In this document: in pieces, positions 511 through 25,169 of the stretch
Layout: every line of letters begins with the position of its first letter
Position numbering within the stretch: the stretch's first letter is position 1
Source of the DNA: Neisseria sp.
GTDB lineage: Bacteria > Pseudomonadota > Gammaproteobacteria > Burkholderiales > Neisseriaceae
Length of the DNA stretch: 64,000 nt
Assembly (NCBI RefSeq): GCF_030530745.1
Contig: NZ_JAUMUI010000003.1
Location: forward strand, 78,394-142,393
Direction: 5' to 3'
Program-made: the position numbers and the translations under genes
The notes under the pieces: model-generated
Told to the model about the DNA's origin: nothing
The model's input: the letters and a program-made list of their open reading frames with translations, nothing else
Databases searched by the model: none

Positions 511-1239
511 TTAACGCAGGCGGCGCACATCATCAATAACGTTTGTGCCGAAACACCCGCTTGCAATCATTCCGGCAATTCCGGCGGCGGCGGTTTCGGG
601 GCTGCTCAGTCCGCCCTCTGCTTTCAGATCAAGAAAACGCCGCACCATCGGAAAATCTGCTTCATGCACCCGGCGGATTTCGTCCTGCATGGCGGTATCG
701 ATCACGCCCGGGGCGATGGATGCGATTTTCACGCACGGATGTTGTTCGGCGGCGATGCAGCGGGCGTGATGGTCGAGCGCGGCTTTGGCGGCACCGTACA
801 CGCTCCAGCCAGGATAAGCGTTGCGCCCTGCCCCGCTGCCGATATGGGCGATTTTCAGCACCGATCCTTCGGGCTTGCAGGCTATCAGATAATTGGCCAG
901 CAGCATGGGCGCGGTAATGTTCAGCGAAACGGCGGCGGCAACCTCGGCTGCCTGCTGCCGTCCCGCCACGGCATTGGGAACAACGGTTGCGGCATTGTTG
1001 ATTAAAACGATTTCCCTGCCGTCTGAAACAAAATGTGCCAATTCACCGCTTTGCAGCCATGCCGTCAAAGCGTCGGTATCGCTCAAATCGATACTGTGCT
1101 GCACGATGTTTTCAGACGGCCTGAAATCTGCCTGCCGCCGCGCAATGCCCAATACACGGCAGCCTGCCTGCAGATAATGCACGGCCAGTGCTTTACCCAG
1201 GCCGCTGCTGTGGCCGGTGATGATGATTTTGGTGTCCAT
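511..1239 (-). CDS. SDR-family short-chain dehydrogenase/reductase
   Basis: A 242-residue protein of classical SDR length. The N-terminal nucleotide-binding motif is T-G-H-S-S-G-L-G (residues 8-15), an N-N-A-A element follows, and the active-site Y-G-A-A-K matches Y-x-x-x-K, so it is probably an intact NAD(P)H-dependent oxidoreductase. The overall look (short, GHSSGLG, V-x-N-N-A-A) is closest to sepiapterin-reductase-like or YciK-like SDRs, but the substrate cannot be read from the sequence. It lies 62 bp downstream of the Smr gene on the same strand, with a DUS in the gap. Two DUS copies lie inside the coding region. Confidence 0.8.
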   Translation of the reverse strand: MDTKIIITGHSSGLGKALAVHYLQAGCRVLGIARRQADFRPSENIVQHSIDLSDTDALTAWLQSGELAHFVSDGREIVLINNAATVVPNAVAGRQQAAEVAAAVSLNITAPMLLANYLIACKPEGSVLKIAHIGSGAGRNAYPGWSVYGAAKAALDHHARCIAAEQHPCVKIASIAPGVIDTAMQDEIRRVHEADFPMVRRFLDLKAEGGLSSPETAAAGIAGMIASGCFGTNVIDDVRRLR

Positions 1240-1425
1240 ACGGTCTGTTTGATAAGGGAAGAAAACCCTATTTTAACGCGGACACTGTTTTTGCCAAGGC
1301 TTCGGCCGTCTGAAACAGGCATGGTATCCAAGCCTTGTGTTTTGCGGTATATTGACCCGCTTCATAAGCAGGCACCGGCTGTTTCCAACCGGTTTGGCCG
1401 ATAGTTTTAAAAAAAAGGAAATGCG

Positions 1426-1836
1426 ATGTTTAAACGCCCTGAAGAACTGATTGTGGCCGTATTGGCGGCCTTATGGGTGGTACTCTCCTACCTGATTGCC
1501 AATTATTTCGGCGCTCCCGCACAAACCAAACTGCTGATTTCAGCGTTAACGCTGATTTGCGTAACCGTATGCTTCGTGCTGTGGCAGCGCAACCTGAGCC
1601 GCACGGTCTGGCCGTTTTTTCTGGGGCTGCTGACAGCCTGCTGGTGGCCGTACCTCGATTGGGTGGCGGTGCGCGATATTCTGGTGCCCGGTGCGGAATC
1701 TTCGGCCATCGTTATCAGCAAACCCTGGTATGCCGGCTGGACTTTTAAAATCATCACCGCCGCCGTACCCGTAGTGCTGGGCTATGCGGTAAAATGGAAG
1801 CTGCACAACAAACACAGGCATAAAGCGGTGGATTAA
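1426..1836 (+). CDS. small integral membrane protein, unknown function
   Basis: A 136-residue hydrophobic protein with about four predicted membrane segments (roughly residues 8-27, 33-52, 60-78 and 108-124) and a basic, His/Lys-rich C-terminal tail, which suggests a cytoplasmic C-terminus. An AAAAAAGGAA stretch just before the ATG is a good ribosome binding site. It is a single-gene unit: the neighbour upstream is divergent and a DUS-pair hairpin follows directly. I do not recognise a named family and give no function. Confidence 0.7.
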   Translation: MFKRPEELIVAVLAALWVVLSYLIANYFGAPAQTKLLISALTLICVTVCFVLWQRNLSRTVWPFFLGLLTACWWPYLDWVAVRDILVPGAESSAIVISKPWYAGWTFKIITAAVPVVLGYAVKWKLHNKHRHKAVD

Positions 1837-1851
1837 ACCGTACCAATCCGC

Positions 1852-1887
1852 AAAGGCCGTCTGAAAAACGCTTTTCAGACGGCCTTT
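1852..1887. terminator. DUS inverted-repeat terminator
   Basis: Inverted pair of AG-DUS (AAAGGCCGTCTGAAAA, loop ACGC, then the complement) ending in TTT. It sits between two convergent genes and can serve both. Confidence 0.75.
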
Positions 1888-1900
1888 GCACAGCACTGCT

Positions 1901-2971
1901 TTATTTATGGTTATAAAACCAGCTTTTGAAATACACGTCTGCACCTTCGCGCAGCAGCACCAGCGTTACCGCCGCCAGCGGCAGGCCGACGAGCATGCCC
2001 ACGAAACCCATCAGCTGCCCGAACGCCATCAGCGAGAAAATCACCCAGAAAGGCGACAGGCCGATACGGTCGCCGACGATTTTCGGTGTGATAAAGAAAC
2101 TTTCTAAAAACTGGCCGGCGGCAAACACCCCCCACACCATCAACAGCCCCTGCCACGAACCGAACTGCAACAGCGCGGCAACAGAAGCGAGCAGCAGGCC
2201 GGTAAATGCGCCCAAATAAGGCACAAATACCAAAATGCCGGCAATCATGCCGATGGCAAAACCCGAATCCAGCCCCACCAGCATCAGCCCCATGCCGTAA
2301 ACCAAACCCATAATCAGCATCACCATCAGCTGGCCGCGCAGAAACTCGCCCAACACCTTATCCATATTGCCGCTGATACGCACATAGCTGCCGATAAAAC
2401 GGCGCGGCACCAGCTTGCGCACACCGTCGCCCCAACGCTGCCAGTCGAGCAGGAAGTAATACAGCAGAAAAGGCAGCAGCAACAGGTTGGAAACCCCCGC
2501 CGCCACATTGCCGCCCTGCCGTATCAGAGTGGGTGCGGCCTTGCGCAGGGTATTGCTCAATTCGCCCGTGTGCGACTGCAGCCACACGGTAATGCTCTGC
2601 ACGTCGACTTCCACCCTCTCTCCCGCCAAACGGCTCACCCACGGCAAGAACCTGTTTTGAACAAAGCCCACAATTTGCGGCAGGCGCTCCACCAGATTGT
2701 TAAACTGGTTAATCAGCATCGGCACAATAATCAGCACCAGCGCGAAAATTACGGCCAGAGAAAAAACCATCACCACCATCGCCGCCGGTGCGCGCCCCAT
2801 ACCTTTGGCGCGCAGCTTTTCCACCAGCGGGTTGAGGATATAGGCCAGCACAGCTGCCACCACAAACGGCGTAAGGATATTGCCCAATGCATAAACCAGC
2901 CATATAAAAGCGGCCAATACCGCCGCCATGATTATCCACGGCCGTGCGCCGCGAGGTTTTTTGCGATACAT
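1901..2971 (-). CDS. AI-2E/PerM family transporter
   Basis: A 356-residue polytopic membrane protein. After a short basic N-terminus it has two or three membrane helices (about residues 12-50 and 62-90), a hydrophilic stretch (about 95-150), and a C-terminal block of hydrophobic helices including a conserved P-Y-x-G segment. This is the pattern of the AI-2E transporter family (formerly UPF0118; PerM, YdiK, TqsA), which exports small molecules or acts in Na+/H+ antiport in some members. Length fits the family (340-370). Substrate is unknown. It is convergent with the membrane gene to its left and divergent from purM. Confidence 0.85.
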   Translation of the reverse strand: MYRKKPRGARPWIIMAAVLAAFIWLVYALGNILTPFVVAAVLAYILNPLVEKLRAKGMGRAPAAMVVMVFSLAVIFALVLIIVPMLINQFNNLVERLPQIVGFVQNRFLPWVSRLAGERVEVDVQSITVWLQSHTGELSNTLRKAAPTLIRQGGNVAAGVSNLLLLPFLLYYFLLDWQRWGDGVRKLVPRRFIGSYVRISGNMDKVLGEFLRGQLMVMLIMGLVYGMGLMLVGLDSGFAIGMIAGILVFVPYLGAFTGLLLASVAALLQFGSWQGLLMVWGVFAAGQFLESFFITPKIVGDRIGLSPFWVIFSLMAFGQLMGFVGMLVGLPLAAVTLVLLREGADVYFKSWFYNHK

Positions 2972-3186
2972 AAAATCAAATAAACAGTTTGTTTGCAGGT
3001 TTCAGACGGCCTCAAGCATATCATATTTGGCTTTAAAAGCCGTCTGAAATTACAGGCAGGCATCGGCAGCCCCAAGCCCTCACCTGCATTTCCGGCATGC
3101 GCCGGAAGCTTTCGGACGGCCGCAACAACACCGCATAATAATCAGGTAAAATAACCTAATTTTTACCTTAGAAAGAAAGCCCCGCG

Positions 3187-4224
3187 ATGAACATCCCTTC
3201 CCTAAGCTACCGCGACGCAGGCGTCGATATCGATGCAGGCGACCAATTGGTCGAAAACATCAAACCCTTTGCCAAACGCACCATGCGCCCCGAAGTGTTG
3301 GGCGGCTTGGGCGGCTTCGGCGCGCTGGTGGAAATCAGCAAAAAATACCGCAACCCCGTTTTGGTTTCGGGCACCGACGGCGTGGGCACCAAACTGAAAC
3401 TGGCCTTTGATTGGGACAAACACGACACCGTCGGCATCGACCTCGTAGCCATGAGCGTGAACGATATTCTGGTGCAGGGCGCCGAGCCGCTGTTTTTCCT
3501 CGACTATTTCGCCTGCGGCAAACTCGACGTGGCACGCGCCACCGATGTGGTCAAAGGCATCGCGCAAGGCTGCGAAGAATCGGGCTGTGCCCTAATCGGT
3601 GGTGAAACCGCCGAAATGCCCGGCATGTATCCCGAAGGCGAATACGATTTGGCCGGCTTCGCCGTGGGTGTGGTGGAAAAAGATCGGATAATCACCGGCC
3701 GCAGCATCGCGCCGGGCGACGCGGTATTGGGCTTGGCTTCCAACGGCGCACACTCCAACGGCTATTCGTTAATCCGCAAAATCATCGAGCGCTGCCAACC
3801 CGATTTGGATGCCCCGTTCGACAACGGCCAAACCCTGCGCCAAGCCGTTATCGCCCCCACCCGCCTGTATGTGAAACCGGTTTTGGCCGCACTGCAAAAA
3901 TTCACCATCAAAGGCATGGCGCACATCACCGGCGGCGGTATCACCGAAAACCTGCCTCGCGTGTTGCCCGAAAACACCGTCGCCCAAATCGATGCGGGCG
4001 CATGGCAGATGCCAAAACTGTTCCAATGGCTGCAACAGGCCGGCAATGTGGAAACGCAGGAAATGTACCGCACCTTCAACTGCGGCATCGGCATGGTGGT
4101 GATTACCGCCGCCGAAGATGCCGATGCGGTGCAAGCCTTCTTGGCCGGACAAGGCGAAACCGTTTACCGTTTGGGTTCGATTCGCGAACGCTCGGGCAAC
4201 GAACACCAAACGCAGATTGCCTGA
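3187..4224 (+). CDS. purM: phosphoribosylformylglycinamidine cyclo-ligase (AIR synthetase)
   Basis: A 345-residue protein of normal PurM length. It makes 5-aminoimidazole ribonucleotide (AIR) from FGAM with ATP, the fifth step of purine synthesis. Visible landmarks are the N-terminal [11 protein letters not shown], the substrate/ATP segment [10 protein letters not shown], the [11 protein letters not shown] element and the glycine-rich G-G-G-I-T-E-N-L-P. The gene stands alone; purL, the preceding enzyme of the pathway, is 7 kb downstream. A small inverted repeat (GGTAAAA and TTTTTACC, about 3146-3169) lies in the leader and could be an operator, which is only a guess. Confidence 0.97.
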
Positions 4225-4287: not shown

Positions 4288-4327
4288 AAATGCCGTCTGA
4301 AACAATTTACTGTTTCAGACGGCATTT
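4288..4327. terminator. DUS-pair terminator after purM, AT-DUS dialect
   Basis: Inverted pair with the ATGCCGTCTGAA spelling and a T run. Most other DUS pairs in this window use the AG spelling. Confidence 0.75.
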
Positions 4328-4898: not shown

Positions 4899-5165
4899 AT
4901 GCATACCTTGAAACACAGTGAATTGAACCATGTGTCAGGAGGATTTGCCTTAAACGCAGGAGGCGCTGCCTTAGGAGCATTAGGAGGCGGTATTTCCTAT
5001 GCTACTTATAATTATGCAAGTAACGGCAAATGGAATTGGACTCACTTTGCGGGATCCGTAAGTGGGGGCGCAATGGCTGGTGCTTTAATGAATCCGGTTG
5101 CAGTTGCAACAGTAGGTGCCGCCGCTAACGGAGCAATAGCAGGCACTGCCGCAAGAGCCAAATAA
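4899..5165 (+). CDS. double-glycine leader bacteriocin-type peptide (locus D)
   Basis: An 88-residue peptide with a 15-residue leader (M-H-T-L-K-H-S-E-L-N-H-V-S-G-G) ending in Gly-Gly, as in class II bacteriocins and microcins that are cut and exported by peptidase-containing ABC transporters. The predicted mature part (~73 residues) is Gly/Ala-rich with several G-x-x-x-G-like runs and little charge, typical of membrane-active pore-forming bacteriocins. RBS AAAGGA lies before the ATG. It shares leader logic and a N-P-V core with the three peptides near 23-25 kb. A hairpin and a small membrane gene follow. Activity is inferred, not shown. Confidence 0.75.
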   Translation: MHTLKHSELNHVSGGFALNAGGAALGALGGGISYATYNYASNGKWNWTHFAGSVSGGAMAGALMNPVAVATVGAAANGAIAGTAARAK

Positions 5166-5172
5166 AAAAACA

Positions 5173-5202
5173 AATCAGCTTCTGCTAAAGCGGAAGCTGA
5201 TT
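5173..5202 (+). terminator. hairpin between peptide and membrane gene
   Basis: Stem AATCAGCTTC-T-GC with TAAA loop and near-perfect complement. It has no good T run and may act as an attenuator or mRNA-stabilising element between peptide and putative immunity gene. Confidence 0.55.
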
Positions 5203-5230
5203 ATCAATAACAGAGACAGGGTTATTTCAG

Positions 5231-5488
5231 ATGAATTTTTTATGGAAAATTTTAGCCCCCTCCGATTCGTTTGCACAAAATATGTATGTCGTTTTTTTTA
5301 TTTTTATCGGCATGGTATTTATCATGCCGGCATTTTACCGTCTGTTTGCAGGAATCGAACCTGTTACGGCTATGGGCCGCTTTGCCGTTCCGTTTTTATC
5401 ACTGCTTGCAACTATTGCCGTTTCCACCCTGTTTACTTTGTTTTCGGCCAAACTTCATAAACAGAGTAAAAAATGCAAACATGATTAA
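5231..5488 (+). CDS. small membrane protein, putative immunity protein (locus D)
   Basis: An 85-residue protein with three likely membrane segments (about residues 15-35, 44-50 with a Pro/Ala loop, and 52-74) and a strongly basic Lys-rich C-terminus. Small basic membrane proteins directly downstream of class II bacteriocin genes are usually self-immunity proteins; here the gene starts 65 bp after the peptide gene stops. No recognisable family. The immunity role rests only on position and size. Confidence 0.5.
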   Translation: MNFLWKILAPSDSFAQNMYVVFFIFIGMVFIMPAFYRLFAGIEPVTAMGRFAVPFLSLLATIAVSTLFTLFSAKLHKQSKKCKHD

Positions 5489-22504: not shown

Positions 22505-22687
22505 GACAGCTTTCTTTATCTCTTTGCAAACGGGCTTAAAACGGCGGCAGAGGCCGCCTGAAAATCTCTCATTATACAGGCAAATACCGGGATATTTTAT
22601 TGCCGCCGTGCGGCGGGCGGATATTTCCATGTATTAACCCAAAAACATATTTCTCAAAAAACCCATTCTGATTGCACAAAAATTAAC

Positions 22688-22703
22688 AAAAAAAAAAAAA
22701 AAA
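22688..22703 (+). repeat. poly-A tract, 16 A
   Basis: Uninterrupted run of 16 A, 107 bases before the start codon of peptide A. The paralogous tract at 24437 has 18. Homopolymers of this length slip in Neisseria and can change promoter strength. Confidence 0.8.
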
Positions 22704-22753
22704 CTAAAACAAAATTATAAAAACTATATCAATAAAAACGAATCCCACCTATA

Positions 22754-22777
22754 GAATTCACGCCGACGGCGGAATTC
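22754..22777 (+). promoter_or_regulatory. palindrome upstream of peptide A, possible operator or hairpin
   Basis: GAATTC-A-CGCCG-A-CGGCG-GAATTC, an 11-base-arm inverted repeat 33 bases before the ATG, conserved in the second repeat copy. A TATAGA just upstream could be the -10 box, in which case the palindrome covers the transcript start. Confidence 0.5.
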
Positions 22778-22810
22778 TTGAATTATCAAACTATCATTAG
22801 GAGTTTTATT

Positions 22811-23107
22811 ATGAGAACTTTAAATGCAAATGAATTGAACTATGTGTCTGGTGGCTTGGTACTTAATGCTGTTGGTGGTATTGCAGGAGGAATAGGAGGA
22901 CACTTTGGGTACCTAGGCGGTGCGATTGCAAGTGGCACATATAACAGAAATGCACATTTGGCAGCAATTGGTGCTGGAGCAATAGGTGGAGCAGTTAACC
23001 CGATAAGAGGCGTTGGCAGTGCCATTGCAACTTTCGGAAGTAGTACTGCGCTGACAGGTGCAACAACCTATATTGGTAATACTGGAACAAGTACCCGTAT
23101 CAGATAA
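22811..23107 (+). CDS. double-glycine leader bacteriocin-type peptide A
   Basis: A 98-residue peptide starting at the ATG after TTAGGAGTTTTATT (the frame is open further upstream but has no ribosome site). The 15-residue leader M-R-T-L-N-A-N-E-L-N-Y-V-S-G-G has the Leu/Glu/Leu/Val/Gly-Gly pattern cut by C39-peptidase ABC exporters. The mature part (~83 residues) is very rich in Gly, Ala and Ile, with repeated G-G/G-x-x-G, like pore-forming class II bacteriocins. N-P-I-R-G-V-G is shared in altered form (S-P-V-R/N-G-I) with peptides B and C. Low GC for this genome. Function inferred. Confidence 0.75.
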   Translation: MRTLNANELNYVSGGLVLNAVGGIAGGIGGHFGYLGGAIASGTYNRNAHLAAIGAGAIGGAVNPIRGVGSAIATFGSSTALTGATTYIGNTGTSTRIR

Positions 23108-23130
23108 ATACGGTGTTTTCAGTATGTATT

Positions 23131-23160
23131 AGGCATGTTATGGAAAATCATAACATGCCT
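23131..23160 (+). terminator. hairpin between peptide A and its membrane gene
   Basis: AGGCATGTTATG, six-base loop, CATAACATGCCT: a perfect 12-base stem with no T run. It has the same placement as the hairpin at 5173-5202. Confidence 0.55.
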
Positions 23161-23189
23161 CCAATTCCATCAAAAACAAATATTTTAAT

Positions 23190-23435
23190 ATGATTATCAT
23201 GGCTTTTTTAGCAACTTGCTTTATGCTTTGTTTCGGGTTTGCCAATTATTGCGTCAAAAATAAATTTTATAGGATTGTTTTTTTAATTTTAGGATGGGTG
23301 TTGTTCGGTTTACATTCTTATTTTTTACAAAAAACCATAGATGATTACAACTTCAAGCAAATATCTATTTATTTTTTATACTTGTTTGCCCAGTTGGTTG
23401 CTTTTATTTTTCTGTTTCGTAAGTTTGACAAATAA
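23190..23435 (+). CDS. small membrane protein, putative immunity protein A1
   Basis: An 81-residue protein with three membrane segments (about residues 3-19, 27-44 and 60-76) and a basic end (F-R-K-F-D-K). It is clearly a paralogue of the protein at 24041: both share F-M-L-C-F-G-F-A-N, K-N-x-F-Y-R-I, a G-W and F-L-Y-L-F-x-Q. No strong ribosome site is seen; the second Met (I-I-M-A-F) is an alternative start. Immunity to peptide A is a guess from position. Confidence 0.55.
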   Translation: MIIMAFLATCFMLCFGFANYCVKNKFYRIVFLILGWVLFGLHSYFLQKTIDDYNFKQISIYFLYLFAQLVAFIFLFRKFDK

Positions 23436-23446
23436 CCTGCTTCGTT

Positions 23447-23701
23447 GTGTACAATGAAATCCAAAATGTATCCGGCGGCTGGGTTGTCGCACATGCTGCA
23501 GGAGCTGTATTGGGAGGTTATGCCAGTGGATACGGCTATTTGGCCGGCGGCGGTAAAGATCCTGATGGATTTCGCAATGCCGTTATTGCAGGGGCAGCGG
23601 GAGGAGCACTCAGTCCTGTGAGAGGCATTGCATCCGGTGCTACTGCAATTGCCAGCGGAATAGTCAGTGGGGCTGTAAATACACACCTGTCAAAAAATTA
23701 G
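23447..23701 (+). CDS. bacteriocin-type peptide B with truncated leader
   Basis: Reads Y-N-E-I-Q-N-V-S-G-G-W after a GTG, so the Gly-Gly processing site is present but the first residues of the usual leader (M-R-T-L-N-A) are gone; an in-frame stop lies seven codons upstream of the GTG and no ribosome site is seen. The mature part is a close paralogue of peptide C, sharing G-Y-G-Y-L-A-G-G-G-K-D-P and S-P-V-x-G-I. It begins 11 bp after the A1 membrane gene. It could be translated by coupling from GTG, or be a silent cassette that donates sequence by recombination. Either is inference. Confidence 0.55.
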   Translation: MYNEIQNVSGGWVVAHAAGAVLGGYASGYGYLAGGGKDPDGFRNAVIAGAAGGALSPVRGIASGATAIASGIVSGAVNTHLSKN

Positions 23702-23710
23702 GATACAAGT

Positions 23711-23920
23711 ATGTGGGATATGCTATATGAACCTTTATTTATCGGCCTAAGCATATTACAGATGATTCTATTTGGAGCAATAGTACTTGGCCTTTATATT
23801 TTTTATATTTTTGTCATGAAGCGTATCCATCATAATTTACTGCTTACATTTTTAGCACAAACTGGAGCAGCCATTATCGTCGGCTATCTAGTTTCTAAAA
23901 TTTTTAATATTCATCATTAA
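23711..23920 (+). CDS. small membrane protein, putative immunity protein B
   Basis: A 69-residue protein, two membrane segments (about residues 9-35 and 45-63), His-rich around 40 and at the C-terminus. Ribosome site TTAGGA overlaps the stop of peptide B, nine bases upstream. Sequence differs from the A1-type membrane proteins. It is followed by a strong hairpin. Immunity role inferred from position only. Confidence 0.5.
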   Translation: MWDMLYEPLFIGLSILQMILFGAIVLGLYIFYIFVMKRIHHNLLLTFLAQTGAAIIVGYLVSKIFNIHH

Positions 23921-23936
23921 CTGAATATCTAAAAAT

Positions 23937-23967
23937 AACACTGCCTGTAAATTTTACAGGCAGTGTT
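23937..23967 (+). terminator. hairpin after the peptide B unit
   Basis: AACACTGCCTGTAAA and TTTTACAGGCAGTGTT form a long perfect stem followed by a weak T-rich tail. Likely transcription end for the left half of the array. Confidence 0.7.
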
Positions 23968-24040
23968 CTTATAACTAAAATGCTGCTTTAATGCCGTTTG
24001 AAACTTAATTTATGCCGATTGGCCTCCAATGGGAGGAAGA

Positions 24041-24277
24041 ATGCTTTATTATGCAGCAATATTGGCTACAGCTTTTATGCTTTGCTTCGGATTTGCCAAC
24101 CATATAATCAAAAACAGGTTTTATAGAATAACCTGTTTGATTTCCGGTTGGATTATTTTCACTTTTCATCAGTATGTCATAATAAATAACATAGAACATG
24201 TTCCGGGCCGTTATTTTTTATACTTATTCACACAGGCCGTTATCCTTGTTTTTCTGTTCCGAAGATTTTCAAAATAA
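24041..24277 (+). CDS. orphan small membrane protein, paralogue of A1
   Basis: Starting at the ATG after GGGAGGAAGA gives 78 residues (M-L-Y-Y-A-A-I-L-A-T-A-F-M-L-C-F-G); an in-frame ATG 12 bases earlier overlaps the ribosome site and is less likely. Three membrane segments, basic tail F-R-R-F-S-K. Paralogue of the A1 protein at 23190 through the whole length. No peptide gene precedes it: a terminator-like hairpin is upstream and repeat copy 2 begins 22 bp downstream. It may be an orphan immunity gene left after loss of its peptide. Confidence 0.55.
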   Translation: MLYYAAILATAFMLCFGFANHIIKNRFYRITCLISGWIIFTFHQYVIINNIEHVPGRYFLYLFTQAVILVFLFRRFSK

Positions 24278-24436
24278 TCATCTTTTTAAAACCGGTACAG
24301 GCCGCCTGAAAACCCCTGCATTATACAGGCAAATACCGGGATATTTTATTGCCGCCGTACGTCGGGCGGATATTTCCATGTATTAGCTCAAAAACATATT
24401 TCTCAAATAATCCATTCCGATCGCACAAAAATTAAC

Positions 24437-24454
24437 AAAAAAAAAAAAAAAAAA
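24437..24454 (+). repeat. poly-A tract, 18 A
   Basis: Uninterrupted 18 A, 107 bases before the start of peptide C, matching the 16-base tract of copy 1 in position. Confidence 0.8.
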
Positions 24455-24504
24455 CTAAAACAAAATTATAAAAACTATATCAATAAAAACGAATCCCACC
24501 TATA

Positions 24505-24528
24505 GAATTCACGCCGACGGCGGAGTTC
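24505..24528 (+). promoter_or_regulatory. palindrome upstream of peptide C
   Basis: GAATTC-A-CGCCG-A-CGGCG-GAGTTC; same place as the perfect palindrome of copy 1, with one arm base changed. It lies 33 bases before the ATG. Confidence 0.45.
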
Positions 24529-24561
24529 TTGATTTATCAAACTATCATTAGGAGTTTTATT

Positions 24562-24831
24562 ATGAGAACTTTAAATGCAAATGAAATCCAACATGTATCC
24601 GGCGGCTGGGTTGCCAATGCGTTAGGTGCGGCAGCAGGAGCATACGGAGCCGGATACGGCTATCTTGCCGGAGGCGGCAAAGATCCCAATAGATTTTTAG
24701 GAGCCGTAGCACTGGGGGGGCTTACTGGCGCAGCAAGTCCTGTGAACGGTATTCGTTCTGCCGCAAAGACAGCAGCTGTCTCATTCGGAGGTAGTGCCGC
24801 CACCACTGCAATTGGAAGTCCTTATTTTTAA
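24562..24831 (+). CDS. double-glycine leader bacteriocin-type peptide C
   Basis: An 89-residue peptide from the ATG after ATTAGGAGTTTTATT. The leader M-R-T-L-N-A-N-E-I-Q-H-V-S-G-G is intact and nearly identical to that of peptide A over the first nine residues. The mature part (~74 residues) is Gly/Ala-rich and closely related to peptide B, for example G-Y-G-Y-L-A-G-G-G-K-D-P. The predicted product would be exported and cut after Gly-Gly by a transporter encoded elsewhere. A 52-residue membrane protein gene follows after 4 bp. Confidence 0.75.
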   Translation: MRTLNANEIQHVSGGWVANALGAAAGAYGAGYGYLAGGGKDPNRFLGAVALGGLTGAASPVNGIRSAAKTAAVSFGGSAATTAIGSPYF

Positions 24832-24835
24832 ATAA

Positions 24836-24994
24836 ATGAAAAAAGATTTTCTATTCTTTTTTGTTATTCTATTATCATTTATTACCATAATAATAGGGTT
24901 AAAATACTTGTTTCCTGATAGAGATATGTTTTACTGGCAGCTAGGAACAAGCTTAACTGCTGCAGTTCTTATCCGAAAACTGTTCAAATATTAA
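24836..24994 (+). CDS. 52-residue membrane protein, putative immunity protein C
   Basis: A short frame, M-K-K-D-F-L-F-F-F-V..., ending L-I-R-K-L-F-K-Y. One strong membrane helix (residues 5-22) and a second, weaker one near the C-terminus, with a basic end. It starts four bases after the peptide C stop, so translation is probably coupled, and ends just before a terminator hairpin. Small size and placement fit an immunity protein; there is no sequence match to the other three membrane proteins. Confidence 0.5.
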   Translation: MKKDFLFFFVILLSFITIIIGLKYLFPDRDMFYWQLGTSLTAAVLIRKLFKY

Positions 24995-25004
24995 CCCTCA
25001 ATCC

Positions 25005-25031
25005 AAAGGGAAGAATTTAATTCTTCCCTTT
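25005..25031 (+). terminator. terminator at the end of the bacteriocin array
   Basis: AAAGGGAAGAA, TTTAA loop, TTCTTCCCTTT: perfect 11-base stem 11 bp after the last membrane gene. Confidence 0.75.
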
Positions 25032-25169
25032 CTGCTTTCCGCTTCGGCCTACTTATTTTTCAGACGGCCTCAAACAAGCACTCAACCCGAACTTACCCAC
25101 AAACTAAATAAAATAATCAAACAAAAACAGAATATTGAATAAAACAGCTGCAATAAAAAGCAGTTTTTT

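What the first reader, a model, noticed from the sequence alone, without database searches (positions are those of the whole stretch)
22549..25031. Cassette-like array of double-glycine bacteriocin-type peptides between trpS and clpB
Three Gly/Ala-rich peptides with Gly-Gly leaders and four small basic membrane proteins are packed into 2.5 kb of low-GC DNA in a GC-rich core region. Peptides B and C are close paralogues, A is more distant, and two of the membrane proteins are paralogues. A promoter/leader segment is duplicated at about 1.75-kb spacing. This looks like an expanding toxin/immunity array for competition among neisseriae. No exporter is nearby, so a distant or shared ABC transporter is implied.
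Basis: partly seen in the sequence, partly recalled or inferred. Interest (0 to 1): 0.78.

Follow-up and report, generated by a model that had tools for sequence, protein, structure and literature searches.

The report
Orphan bacteriocin-and-immunity cassettes in Neisseria
A Neisseria genome carries a patchwork of small bacteriocin-like peptide genes and their likely protector genes, assembled by gene exchange, yet the machine normally needed to export such peptides was not found in it, so the set looks like a swappable reserve or an inherited shield rather than a working weapon.

Summary
Between trpS and clpB lie three related Gly/Ala-rich double-glycine peptides (A, B, C) and four small membrane proteins in low-GC DNA, with a promoter/leader segment duplicated 1,749-1,751 bp apart. 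Corrections: B has lost half its leader and shows no ribosome-binding site, and this is one of four cassette loci found in the genome (9 peptides, 15 immunity-like genes).
The site is usually empty: of 28 genomes with adjacent trpS and clpB, 24 have 255-405 bp gaps and the other four hold cassette material. Cassette C was exchanged recently with N. weixii (core dS 0.13; flanking clpB dS 1.12).
The implied distant exporter was not found: no C39 domain, no close HlyD and no NapF match in the 99.76%-complete draft, whereas 9 of 9 other genus genomes with this peptide family have a C39 protein.
Best reading: transformation-borne, possibly phase-variable peptide/immunity cassettes, export-deficient here, kept as an immunity and cassette reserve. 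Related cores also occur in nap-type loci behind Sec-like pro-leaders, so cores seem to move between export routes.
The kind is known (meningococcal double-glycine peptides, gonococcal Naps, Moraxella McbC/McbI); the exporter-less state, uptake-sequence borders and leader exchange are the new part. Function is untested.

The parts
22551..22562 (+). DUS-like 12-mer AGGCCGCCTGAA (one mismatch from the genome's AG-DUS) at the left edge of the A unit and of the duplicated segment
22570..22810 (+). upstream segment of peptide A, duplicated ahead of peptide C; contains a run of 16 A at 22688
22811..23107 (+). peptide A, 98 aa, leader MRTLNANELNYVSGG, predicted mature 83 aa, charge +4
23190..23435 (+). 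immA, 81 aa, about 3 hydrophobic segments, putative immunity protein of A
23447..23701 (+). peptide B, 84 aa, 5'-truncated leader (YNEIQNVSGG), no visible RBS or own promoter segment; probably inactive
23711..23920 (+). immB, 69 aa, about 2 hydrophobic segments; linked to a B-type peptide in G008 too
23937..23967 (.). 14-bp hairpin after immB, listed as terminator-like on the - strand
24029..24277 (+). immA2, 82 aa, paralogue of immA (53%), without its own peptide; same position as in the G044 gap
24299..24310 (+). second copy of AGGCCGCCTGAA, left edge of the C unit
24319..24561 (+). duplicated upstream segment of peptide C, with a run of 18 A at 24437
24562..24831 (+). peptide C, 89 aa, leader MRTLNANEIQHVSGG, predicted mature 74 aa, charge +3
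24836..24994 (+). immC, 52 aa, putative immunity protein of C; an immC-like ORF follows C at all six intact C loci examined
24545..25033 (+). tract 90.7% identical to N. weixii in the same gap (RBS, leader, core, immC, end of unit)
25059..25070 (-). AG-DUS on the - strand, right edge of the array
4290..4325 (.). inverted pair of AT-DUS about 0.6 kb upstream of the E cassette
4899..5165 (+). peptide E, 88 aa, leader MHTLKHSELNHVSGG: a further member in the same window
5231..5488 (+). 85-aa membrane protein after peptide E, putative immunity protein (by position and hydrophobicity only)

Best explanation
The trpS-clpB gap is a chromosomal docking site at which units of a bacteriocin-like double-glycine peptide gene plus its own small membrane immunity gene have been collected by DNA-uptake-sequence-guided natural transformation and homologous recombination. 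In species that own a C39 exporter the precursor would be cut after the GG and the cationic Gly/Ala-rich core exported to permeabilise membranes of relatives lacking the matching immunity protein. In this genome no C39 protease or exporter was found, so A and C are most likely not matured, B is beheaded, and the set now serves (or decays) as an immunity bank against producing relatives and as a reserve of cores that becomes active again when an exporter or another leader is acquired. Shown by sequence: the pairing, the docking site, the interspecies exchange, and the absence of detectable C39 in the draft. Inferred: immunity function, membrane target, transformation as the route, phase variation through the A/G runs, and retention by selection for immunity.
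For: No C39: (the same Pfam search matched 20 of 47 genus genomes; of the 10 genomes with this peptide family the 9 others have C39; Fisher P 0.0009, not corrected for relatedness). Docking site: gaps 255-405 bp in 24 of 28 genomes with adjacent trpS/clpB; the four larger gaps (G000, G043, G044, G022) all hold cassette material; the nearest relatives by clpB, G011 and G012, are empty. Exchange: C tract 90.7% identical to N. weixii; core dS 0.125 and immC dS 0.255 against clpB 1.12 and trpS 1.04. In the fetched stretches of C32 and C29, 13 of 14 AT-DUS but 2 of 33 AG-DUS lie inside the arrays. Pairing: an immC-like ORF follows C at 6 of 6 intact C loci examined (G000, G008, G021, G044 and two in G043); B+immB in G000 and G008. 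Constraint: C core 2 nonsynonymous of 9 changes against G043, P 0.0017 if 74% are expected nonsynonymous. Of 8 broken peptides examined, 5 keep an open partner frame (B/immB here; C in G022; D-type at two places in G043 and one in G044).
Against: The draft has 53 contigs, so an exporter could lie in a gap; only one genome per species is held, so strain variation was not seen. The gonococcal Naps had no detectable antibacterial activity (PMC11798529). The constraint on the C core may have acted in donor species that do export. No immunity-only genome turned up for the one partner family searched (D-type: 4 of 47 genomes, all of which also have peptides). Of the 8 broken peptides, one has an altered partner (B in the G044 gap), one no clear partner (A-type in G021) and one a doubtful partner (H-type in G043); one partner gene in C32 seems frameshifted while peptide F is intact. 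N. weixii's assembly scores 85% complete, so its broken genes may be sequencing errors. No expression, immunity or killing data.
Confidence: 0.55

Rival explanations
1. A working competition array: the exporter is encoded in an unassembled part of this genome, or an unrelated transporter (for example the LapB-like type I system on contig C35) exports the peptides.
For: Seven of the ten genomes with this peptide family have a C39 domain in an open frame of at least 450 aa, and an H-type relative lies within a few kb of such a domain in G044. A LapB-like ABC + HlyD + TolC-like set exists in G000. The C core is under purifying selection.
Against: Completeness is 99.76%. The LapB-like ABC protein has no PF03412 match. 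The GG leader is normally read by a C39 peptidase (established knowledge).
Confidence: 0.2
2. Nap-like autolysis effectors: the peptides act on the producer in stationary phase rather than on competitors, releasing DNA to kin.
For: Naps are bacteriocin-like peptides of the same genus and promote autolysis (PMC11798529). C/B- and D-type cores occur in nap-type loci (G083, G040).
Against: G000 gave no match for C39 or for one NapF query. Its peptides lack the Sec-like N-terminus of the nap-locus peptides seen. Each peptide is paired with a membrane protein, which fits protection better than suicide.
Confidence: 0.12
3. Plain decay: leftover genes of a lost system with no present function.
For: No exporter found; B is beheaded; broken relatives in G021, G022, G043 and G044.
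Against: Eight of nine peptides in G000 have intact frames with full leaders. The C core shows constraint. The C unit and the AT-DUS-bearing arrays look recently gained.
Confidence: 0.13

Closest known systems
Double-glycine peptide secretion units of Neisseria meningitidis 8013 (NeMeSys, PMC2784325, passages read)
   Same: Small Gly-rich basic or acidic peptides with GG/GA leaders in Neisseria; secretion genes listed among variable islands; a complete unit in some strains and only remnants in others
   Different: There the peptides go with units of C39 ABC protein and adaptor plus a TolC-like protein; here peptide/immunity cassettes stand alone and no C39 exporter was found. Sequence comparison with those peptides was not made
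nap island and Nap peptides of N. gonorrhoeae (PMC11798529; sections 3, 4 part 1 of 2 and 9 read, passages elsewhere)
   Same: Low-GC horizontally acquired island, cationic GG peptides, likely phase-variable tracts; related cores found here in nap-type loci of other Neisseriaceae
   Different: Nap loci carry NapP and NapF; nap-locus relatives seen here have a Sec-like N-terminus; gonococcal mature Naps are 16-36 aa against 74-83 aa here; direct sequence comparison with them was not made
mcbABCI of Moraxella catarrhalis (PMC2761928, passages read)
   Same: 101-aa GG peptide followed by a small immunity protein (74 aa), killing between strains shown
   Different: Exporter genes adjacent; sequence relationship to A-C was not tested
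Class IIb bacteriocins of the lactobin A/cerein 7B family (TIGR03949)
   Same: Leader and Gly/Ala-rich start match weakly (C: E 0.0009)
   Different: 19.0 bits, under the curated cut-off of 21.5

Membership tests
Class II microcin / double-glycine bacteriocin | GG leader on a small (<10 kDa) cationic peptide | tested here: met
   A and C: leaders ending VSGG, 98 and 89 aa, mature charge +4 and +3; B only a half leader
Class II microcin / double-glycine bacteriocin | C39-peptidase ABC exporter with HlyD partner in the genome | tested here: not met
   0 PF03412 matches, no close HlyD; draft of 53 contigs
Class II microcin / double-glycine bacteriocin | small membrane gene linked to the peptide (putative immunity gene) | tested here: met
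   conserved adjacency: C/immC at 6 of 6 intact C loci, B/immB at 2; the immunity function itself is untested
Class II microcin / double-glycine bacteriocin | antibacterial activity | not testable with these tools
   needs bench work
TIGR03949 (lactobin A/cerein 7B) | score over curated cut-off | tested here: not met
   C 19.0 bits and E 17.4 bits against 21.5; A and B no match
TIGR01847 (bacteriocin leader signal) | score over curated cut-off 15.7 | tested here: inconclusive
   not matched by window A, B, C or E; over cut-off for A', F and G of the same genome and for C of N. weixii and G008
PF10439 (Bacteriocin_IIc) | gathering score | tested here: not met
   no match for A-C; F and G of G000 23.0 and 24.6 bits against 27.1
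nap island | NapP (stand-alone C39) and NapF (FapF-like) | tested here: not met
   one search is one query, a NapF-like protein of N. weixii named by position and a sub-threshold barrel match, without a positive control in the same call
nap island | peptide cores homologous to nap-locus peptides | tested here: met
   nap-type loci of G040 (64% to D of G000) and G083 (39% to C, 47% to B); comparison with gonococcal NapA-C themselves not done
Minimal mobile element | alternative gene content between two conserved genes, exchanged by recombination without mobility genes | tested here: met
   trpS-clpB gap empty or differently filled, exchange tract with low dS; the N. weixii copy also holds transposase-like ORFs. 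The definition is recalled, with passages

The most novel reading that the evidence does not exclude
Neisseriaceae share a common pool of peptide-core + immunity modules that natural transformation shuffles between three contexts: C39-ABC exporter leaders, Sec + NapP pro-leaders in nap-type loci, and exporter-less arrays bounded by inverted DNA uptake sequences. Exporter-less genomes use the arrays as an inherited, DUS-tagged immunity library against neighbours whose lysis supplies the transforming DNA.
Probability: 0.3. Interest if true: 0.65.

Novelty: new variant of a known kind. Interest (0 to 1): 0.45.

Why it matters
If right, it links three observations in one genus: the unassigned double-glycine peptides of meningococci, the Naps that were tested and found not antibacterial, and the uptake sequences that steer transformation. 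It gives a testable case of immunity kept without a weapon, and of one peptide core being served by two different export routes through exchange of its leader. It also warns against annotating such arrays as active bacteriocin clusters.

Tried and rejected
Plasmid and phage origin: no match to the array DNA in plasmids, none for peptide C in phages or plasmids by tblastn, none confirmed in viral contigs (52 pattern matches, 0 relatives), no PHROG family for nine proteins at E 0.01. Known structures: no PDB sequence match to the peptide profile. An AlphaFold model of C was poor (mean pLDDT 52, pTM 0.33, three helices) and was not used. A possible C39 remnant on contig C7 (17 residues, E 0.02) was inspected and is a translated CRISPR-like repeat array. 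Contig C35's transporter was considered as exporter and found to lack PF03412. The promoter scan of the gap found no more sites than shuffles (7 against a mean of 9.4); the terminator scan found 5 against 2.6. The homopolymer control: 2 of 193 upstream windows had a run of 10 or more, and both are tracts that also lie upstream of peptides (trpS in the window and a gene in L073); I dropped these two rows to give 0 of 191, against 7 of 21 peptide upstream regions. The control is not GC-matched, and A and C are copies of one segment, so its P value is optimistic. Immunity genes without peptides were sought only for the D-type partner family (4 of 47 genomes, all with peptides), a result that does not help the immunity-bank reading. 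The peptide profile missed F and G of G000, which a leader pattern found, so its counts are lower bounds and say nothing of other double-glycine families.
Full report
OBSERVATION. The stretch lies between tryptophanyl-tRNA synthetase and ClpB. GC drops from 51-63% to 33-42%. Three related peptides and four small hydrophobic ORFs are present as described. The upstream/leader segment is duplicated at 1749-1751 bp spacing; both copies begin at a DUS-like word, AGGCCGCCTGAA, and carry a run of 16 or 18 A starting about 125 bp upstream of the start codon. A fourth peptide with an 85-aa membrane protein lies at 4899-5488 of the same window.

GENOME CONTEXT. In the window's own genome (G000, 2.28 Mb, 53 contigs, 99.76% complete) I found four cassette loci: the trpS-clpB gap (A, B, C; four membrane proteins), the E locus (one), an array on contig C32 (A', D, F; seven, one apparently frameshifted) and one on C29 (D, G; three). 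That is 9 peptides and 15 immunity-like genes; the last number rests partly on size, position and hydrophobicity.

EXPORTER. Peptidase_C39 gave no match in G000 but matched in 20 of 47 genomes of the genus. The peptide profile matched 10 of 47 at E 1e-4: seven of these (G006, G008, G021, G029, G035, G039, G044) have a C39 domain in an open frame of at least 450 aa, two (G040, G043) only short ones of 249 and 220 aa, and G000 none (Fisher P 0.0009, without correction for relatedness). A wider search gave 11 of 84 genomes of the family at E 1e-6, the one outside the genus being G083. A C39-ABC protein from G008 matched 48 places in G000, but only one, a 17-residue CRISPR-like repeat artefact, in its C39 part; among the others is a LapB-like type I system whose ABC protein has no PF03412. 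A HlyD from an exporter locus of G021 matched best that system's HlyD at 22% identity. A NapF-like protein of N. weixii found nothing. Thus the expected exporter is absent from the assembly as far as these searches show.

DOCKING SITE. From, recounted, trpS and clpB start codons face each other on one contig in 28 of 47 genomes; in 17 they are apart or on different contigs, and in 2 clpB was not found. In 24 of the 28 the gap is 255-405 bp. The four larger gaps are G022 (773 bp: peptide C with an internal deletion plus an open immC frame), G044 (1418 bp: broken B, altered immB, open immA2), G043 (2149 bp: C, immC, transposase-like ORFs, immB remnant) and G000 (2733 bp). G021 has C and immC beside clpB although trpS lies elsewhere. 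The nearest relatives by the clpB start, G011 and G012 (97% identity; dS 0.26-0.29), are empty. G000 thus combines a C unit as in G043, a B/immB/immA2 unit as in G044 and an A unit as in its own C32 array.

EXCHANGE. Window 24545-25033 is 90.7% identical to N. weixii. The C core differs by 7 synonymous and 2 nonsynonymous changes (dS 0.125) and immC dS is 0.255, against dS 1.12 for clpB (400 codons) and 1.04 for the start of trpS (92 codons). The leaders of these two copies are only 60% identical, so leader and core have different histories. In the fetched stretches of C32 (19.7 kb) and C29 (16 kb), 13 of 14 AT-DUS but only 2 of 33 AG-DUS lie inside the arrays (Fisher P 1e-8), although the genome otherwise uses AG-DUS (62 AG against 5 AT in the window; two of those five lie about 0.6 kb upstream of the E cassette). 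Inverted DUS pairs mark the unit borders in C32. PMC3630211 (passages read) reports AT-DUS in meningococci, gonococci, N. lactamica, N. cinerea and N. polysaccharea and AG-DUS in several commensals; AG-DUS transformed N. meningitidis at 0.90 of the AT-DUS rate, and AT-DUS worked at a somewhat lower rate than AG-DUS in N. elongata.

SELECTION AND PAIRING. Cores are strongly conserved between copies while partners are less so: A to A' 84% core identity with immA 26%; C to C of G008 78% with immC 33%; B to B of G008 71% with immB 38%. The adjacency is nevertheless kept: an immC-like ORF follows C at 6 of 6 intact C loci examined. The excess of synonymous changes in the C core (P 0.0017 under an assumed 74% nonsynonymous expectation) shows constraint, but not necessarily in this genome. 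Of 8 broken peptides examined, 5 keep an open partner frame (B here, C in G022, D-type twice in G043 and once in G044), one has an altered partner (G044 gap), one no clear partner (G021) and one a doubtful partner (H-type in G043). The three G043 cases may reflect assembly errors (85% completeness).

HYPERVARIABLE TRACTS. Runs of 10 or more lie upstream of 7 of 21 peptides (A16, A18, A15, A14, A10, G11, T10). The near-identical C copies of G043 and G044 (98% protein identity) have A6 and A14 at the same place. In the C32/C29 arrays a G run of 5, 6, 7 or 11 lies between TTAAC and TAGATAC, while a run-free G044 relative keeps the two boxes at a similar distance. Phase-variable transcription is a reasonable inference; it was not tested.

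CORES BEHIND TWO KINDS OF LEADER. In G040 a D-type core (64% to D of G000) follows an N-terminus that looks like a Sec signal plus a LAELSQKEMKETEGA pro-leader, between a C39 (NapP-like) gene and a NapF-like gene. In G083, another genus of the family, a C/B-type core (39% to C, 47% to B) has the same kind of leader, with a weakly immC-like ORF next to it (27% over 41 residues) and NapF/NapP-like ORFs around it. Sec signals, the G083 NapP and the NapF labels were judged by eye and position; no signal predictor was run and gonococcal NapP/NapF were not compared. An H-type relative lies in the same 18 kb as a C39-ABC exporter in G044. Cores with partners therefore seem to move between export routes.

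PRIOR KNOWLEDGE. Similar peptides are known in N. meningitidis with C39 exporters (PMC2784325, passages) and in the gonococcal nap island, where synthetic Naps did not inhibit bacteria but the peptides promoted autolysis (PMC11798529, sections 3, 4 part 1 and 9). In Moraxella a GG peptide/immunity pair kills rival strains (PMC2761928, passages). My paper searches (listings only beyond the papers named, held open-access library only) showed no title or abstract describing exporter-less, DUS-bounded arrays or leader exchange between these routes.

VERDICT. A real, horizontally assembled peptide/immunity array; the kind is known, the orphan state and modular traffic are the notable part. Mechanistic steps beyond sequence are inference.

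Noticed in passing
window 4899-5488: A further double-glycine peptide (E) and an 85-aa membrane protein downstream of purM, with an inverted AT-DUS pair at 4290-4325 in an AG-DUS genome.
   Followed up: partly
L085 (G000 contig C7), about 1150-3600: A CRISPR-like repeat array whose repeat translates as CFNTQPPEGGC, beside a Cas2-like ORF (3808-4101, -; by eye); it gave a false C39-like hit.
   Followed up: no
L083/L084 (G000 contig C35): A LapB-like type I secretion set: ABC protein without PF03412, HlyD-like and TolC-like genes (labels by eye apart from the ABC domains).
   Followed up: partly
L006 6822-7384: Transposase-like ORFs (by eye) inside the trpS-clpB gap of N. weixii, beside the peptide C cassette.
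   Followed up: no
L065 9755-10150; L090 3292-3747: Nap-locus peptides of G040 and G083 carry D- and C/B-type cores behind Sec-like N-termini; the G040 N-terminus weakly matches NF047414 (BRANT), under its cut-off.
   Followed up: partly
L060, L062, L063, L064: Several peptides in exporter-bearing stretches share a C-terminal tail such as GNNYDGTNY or GNNYCDDGTDY, which the orphan peptides lack.
   Followed up: no
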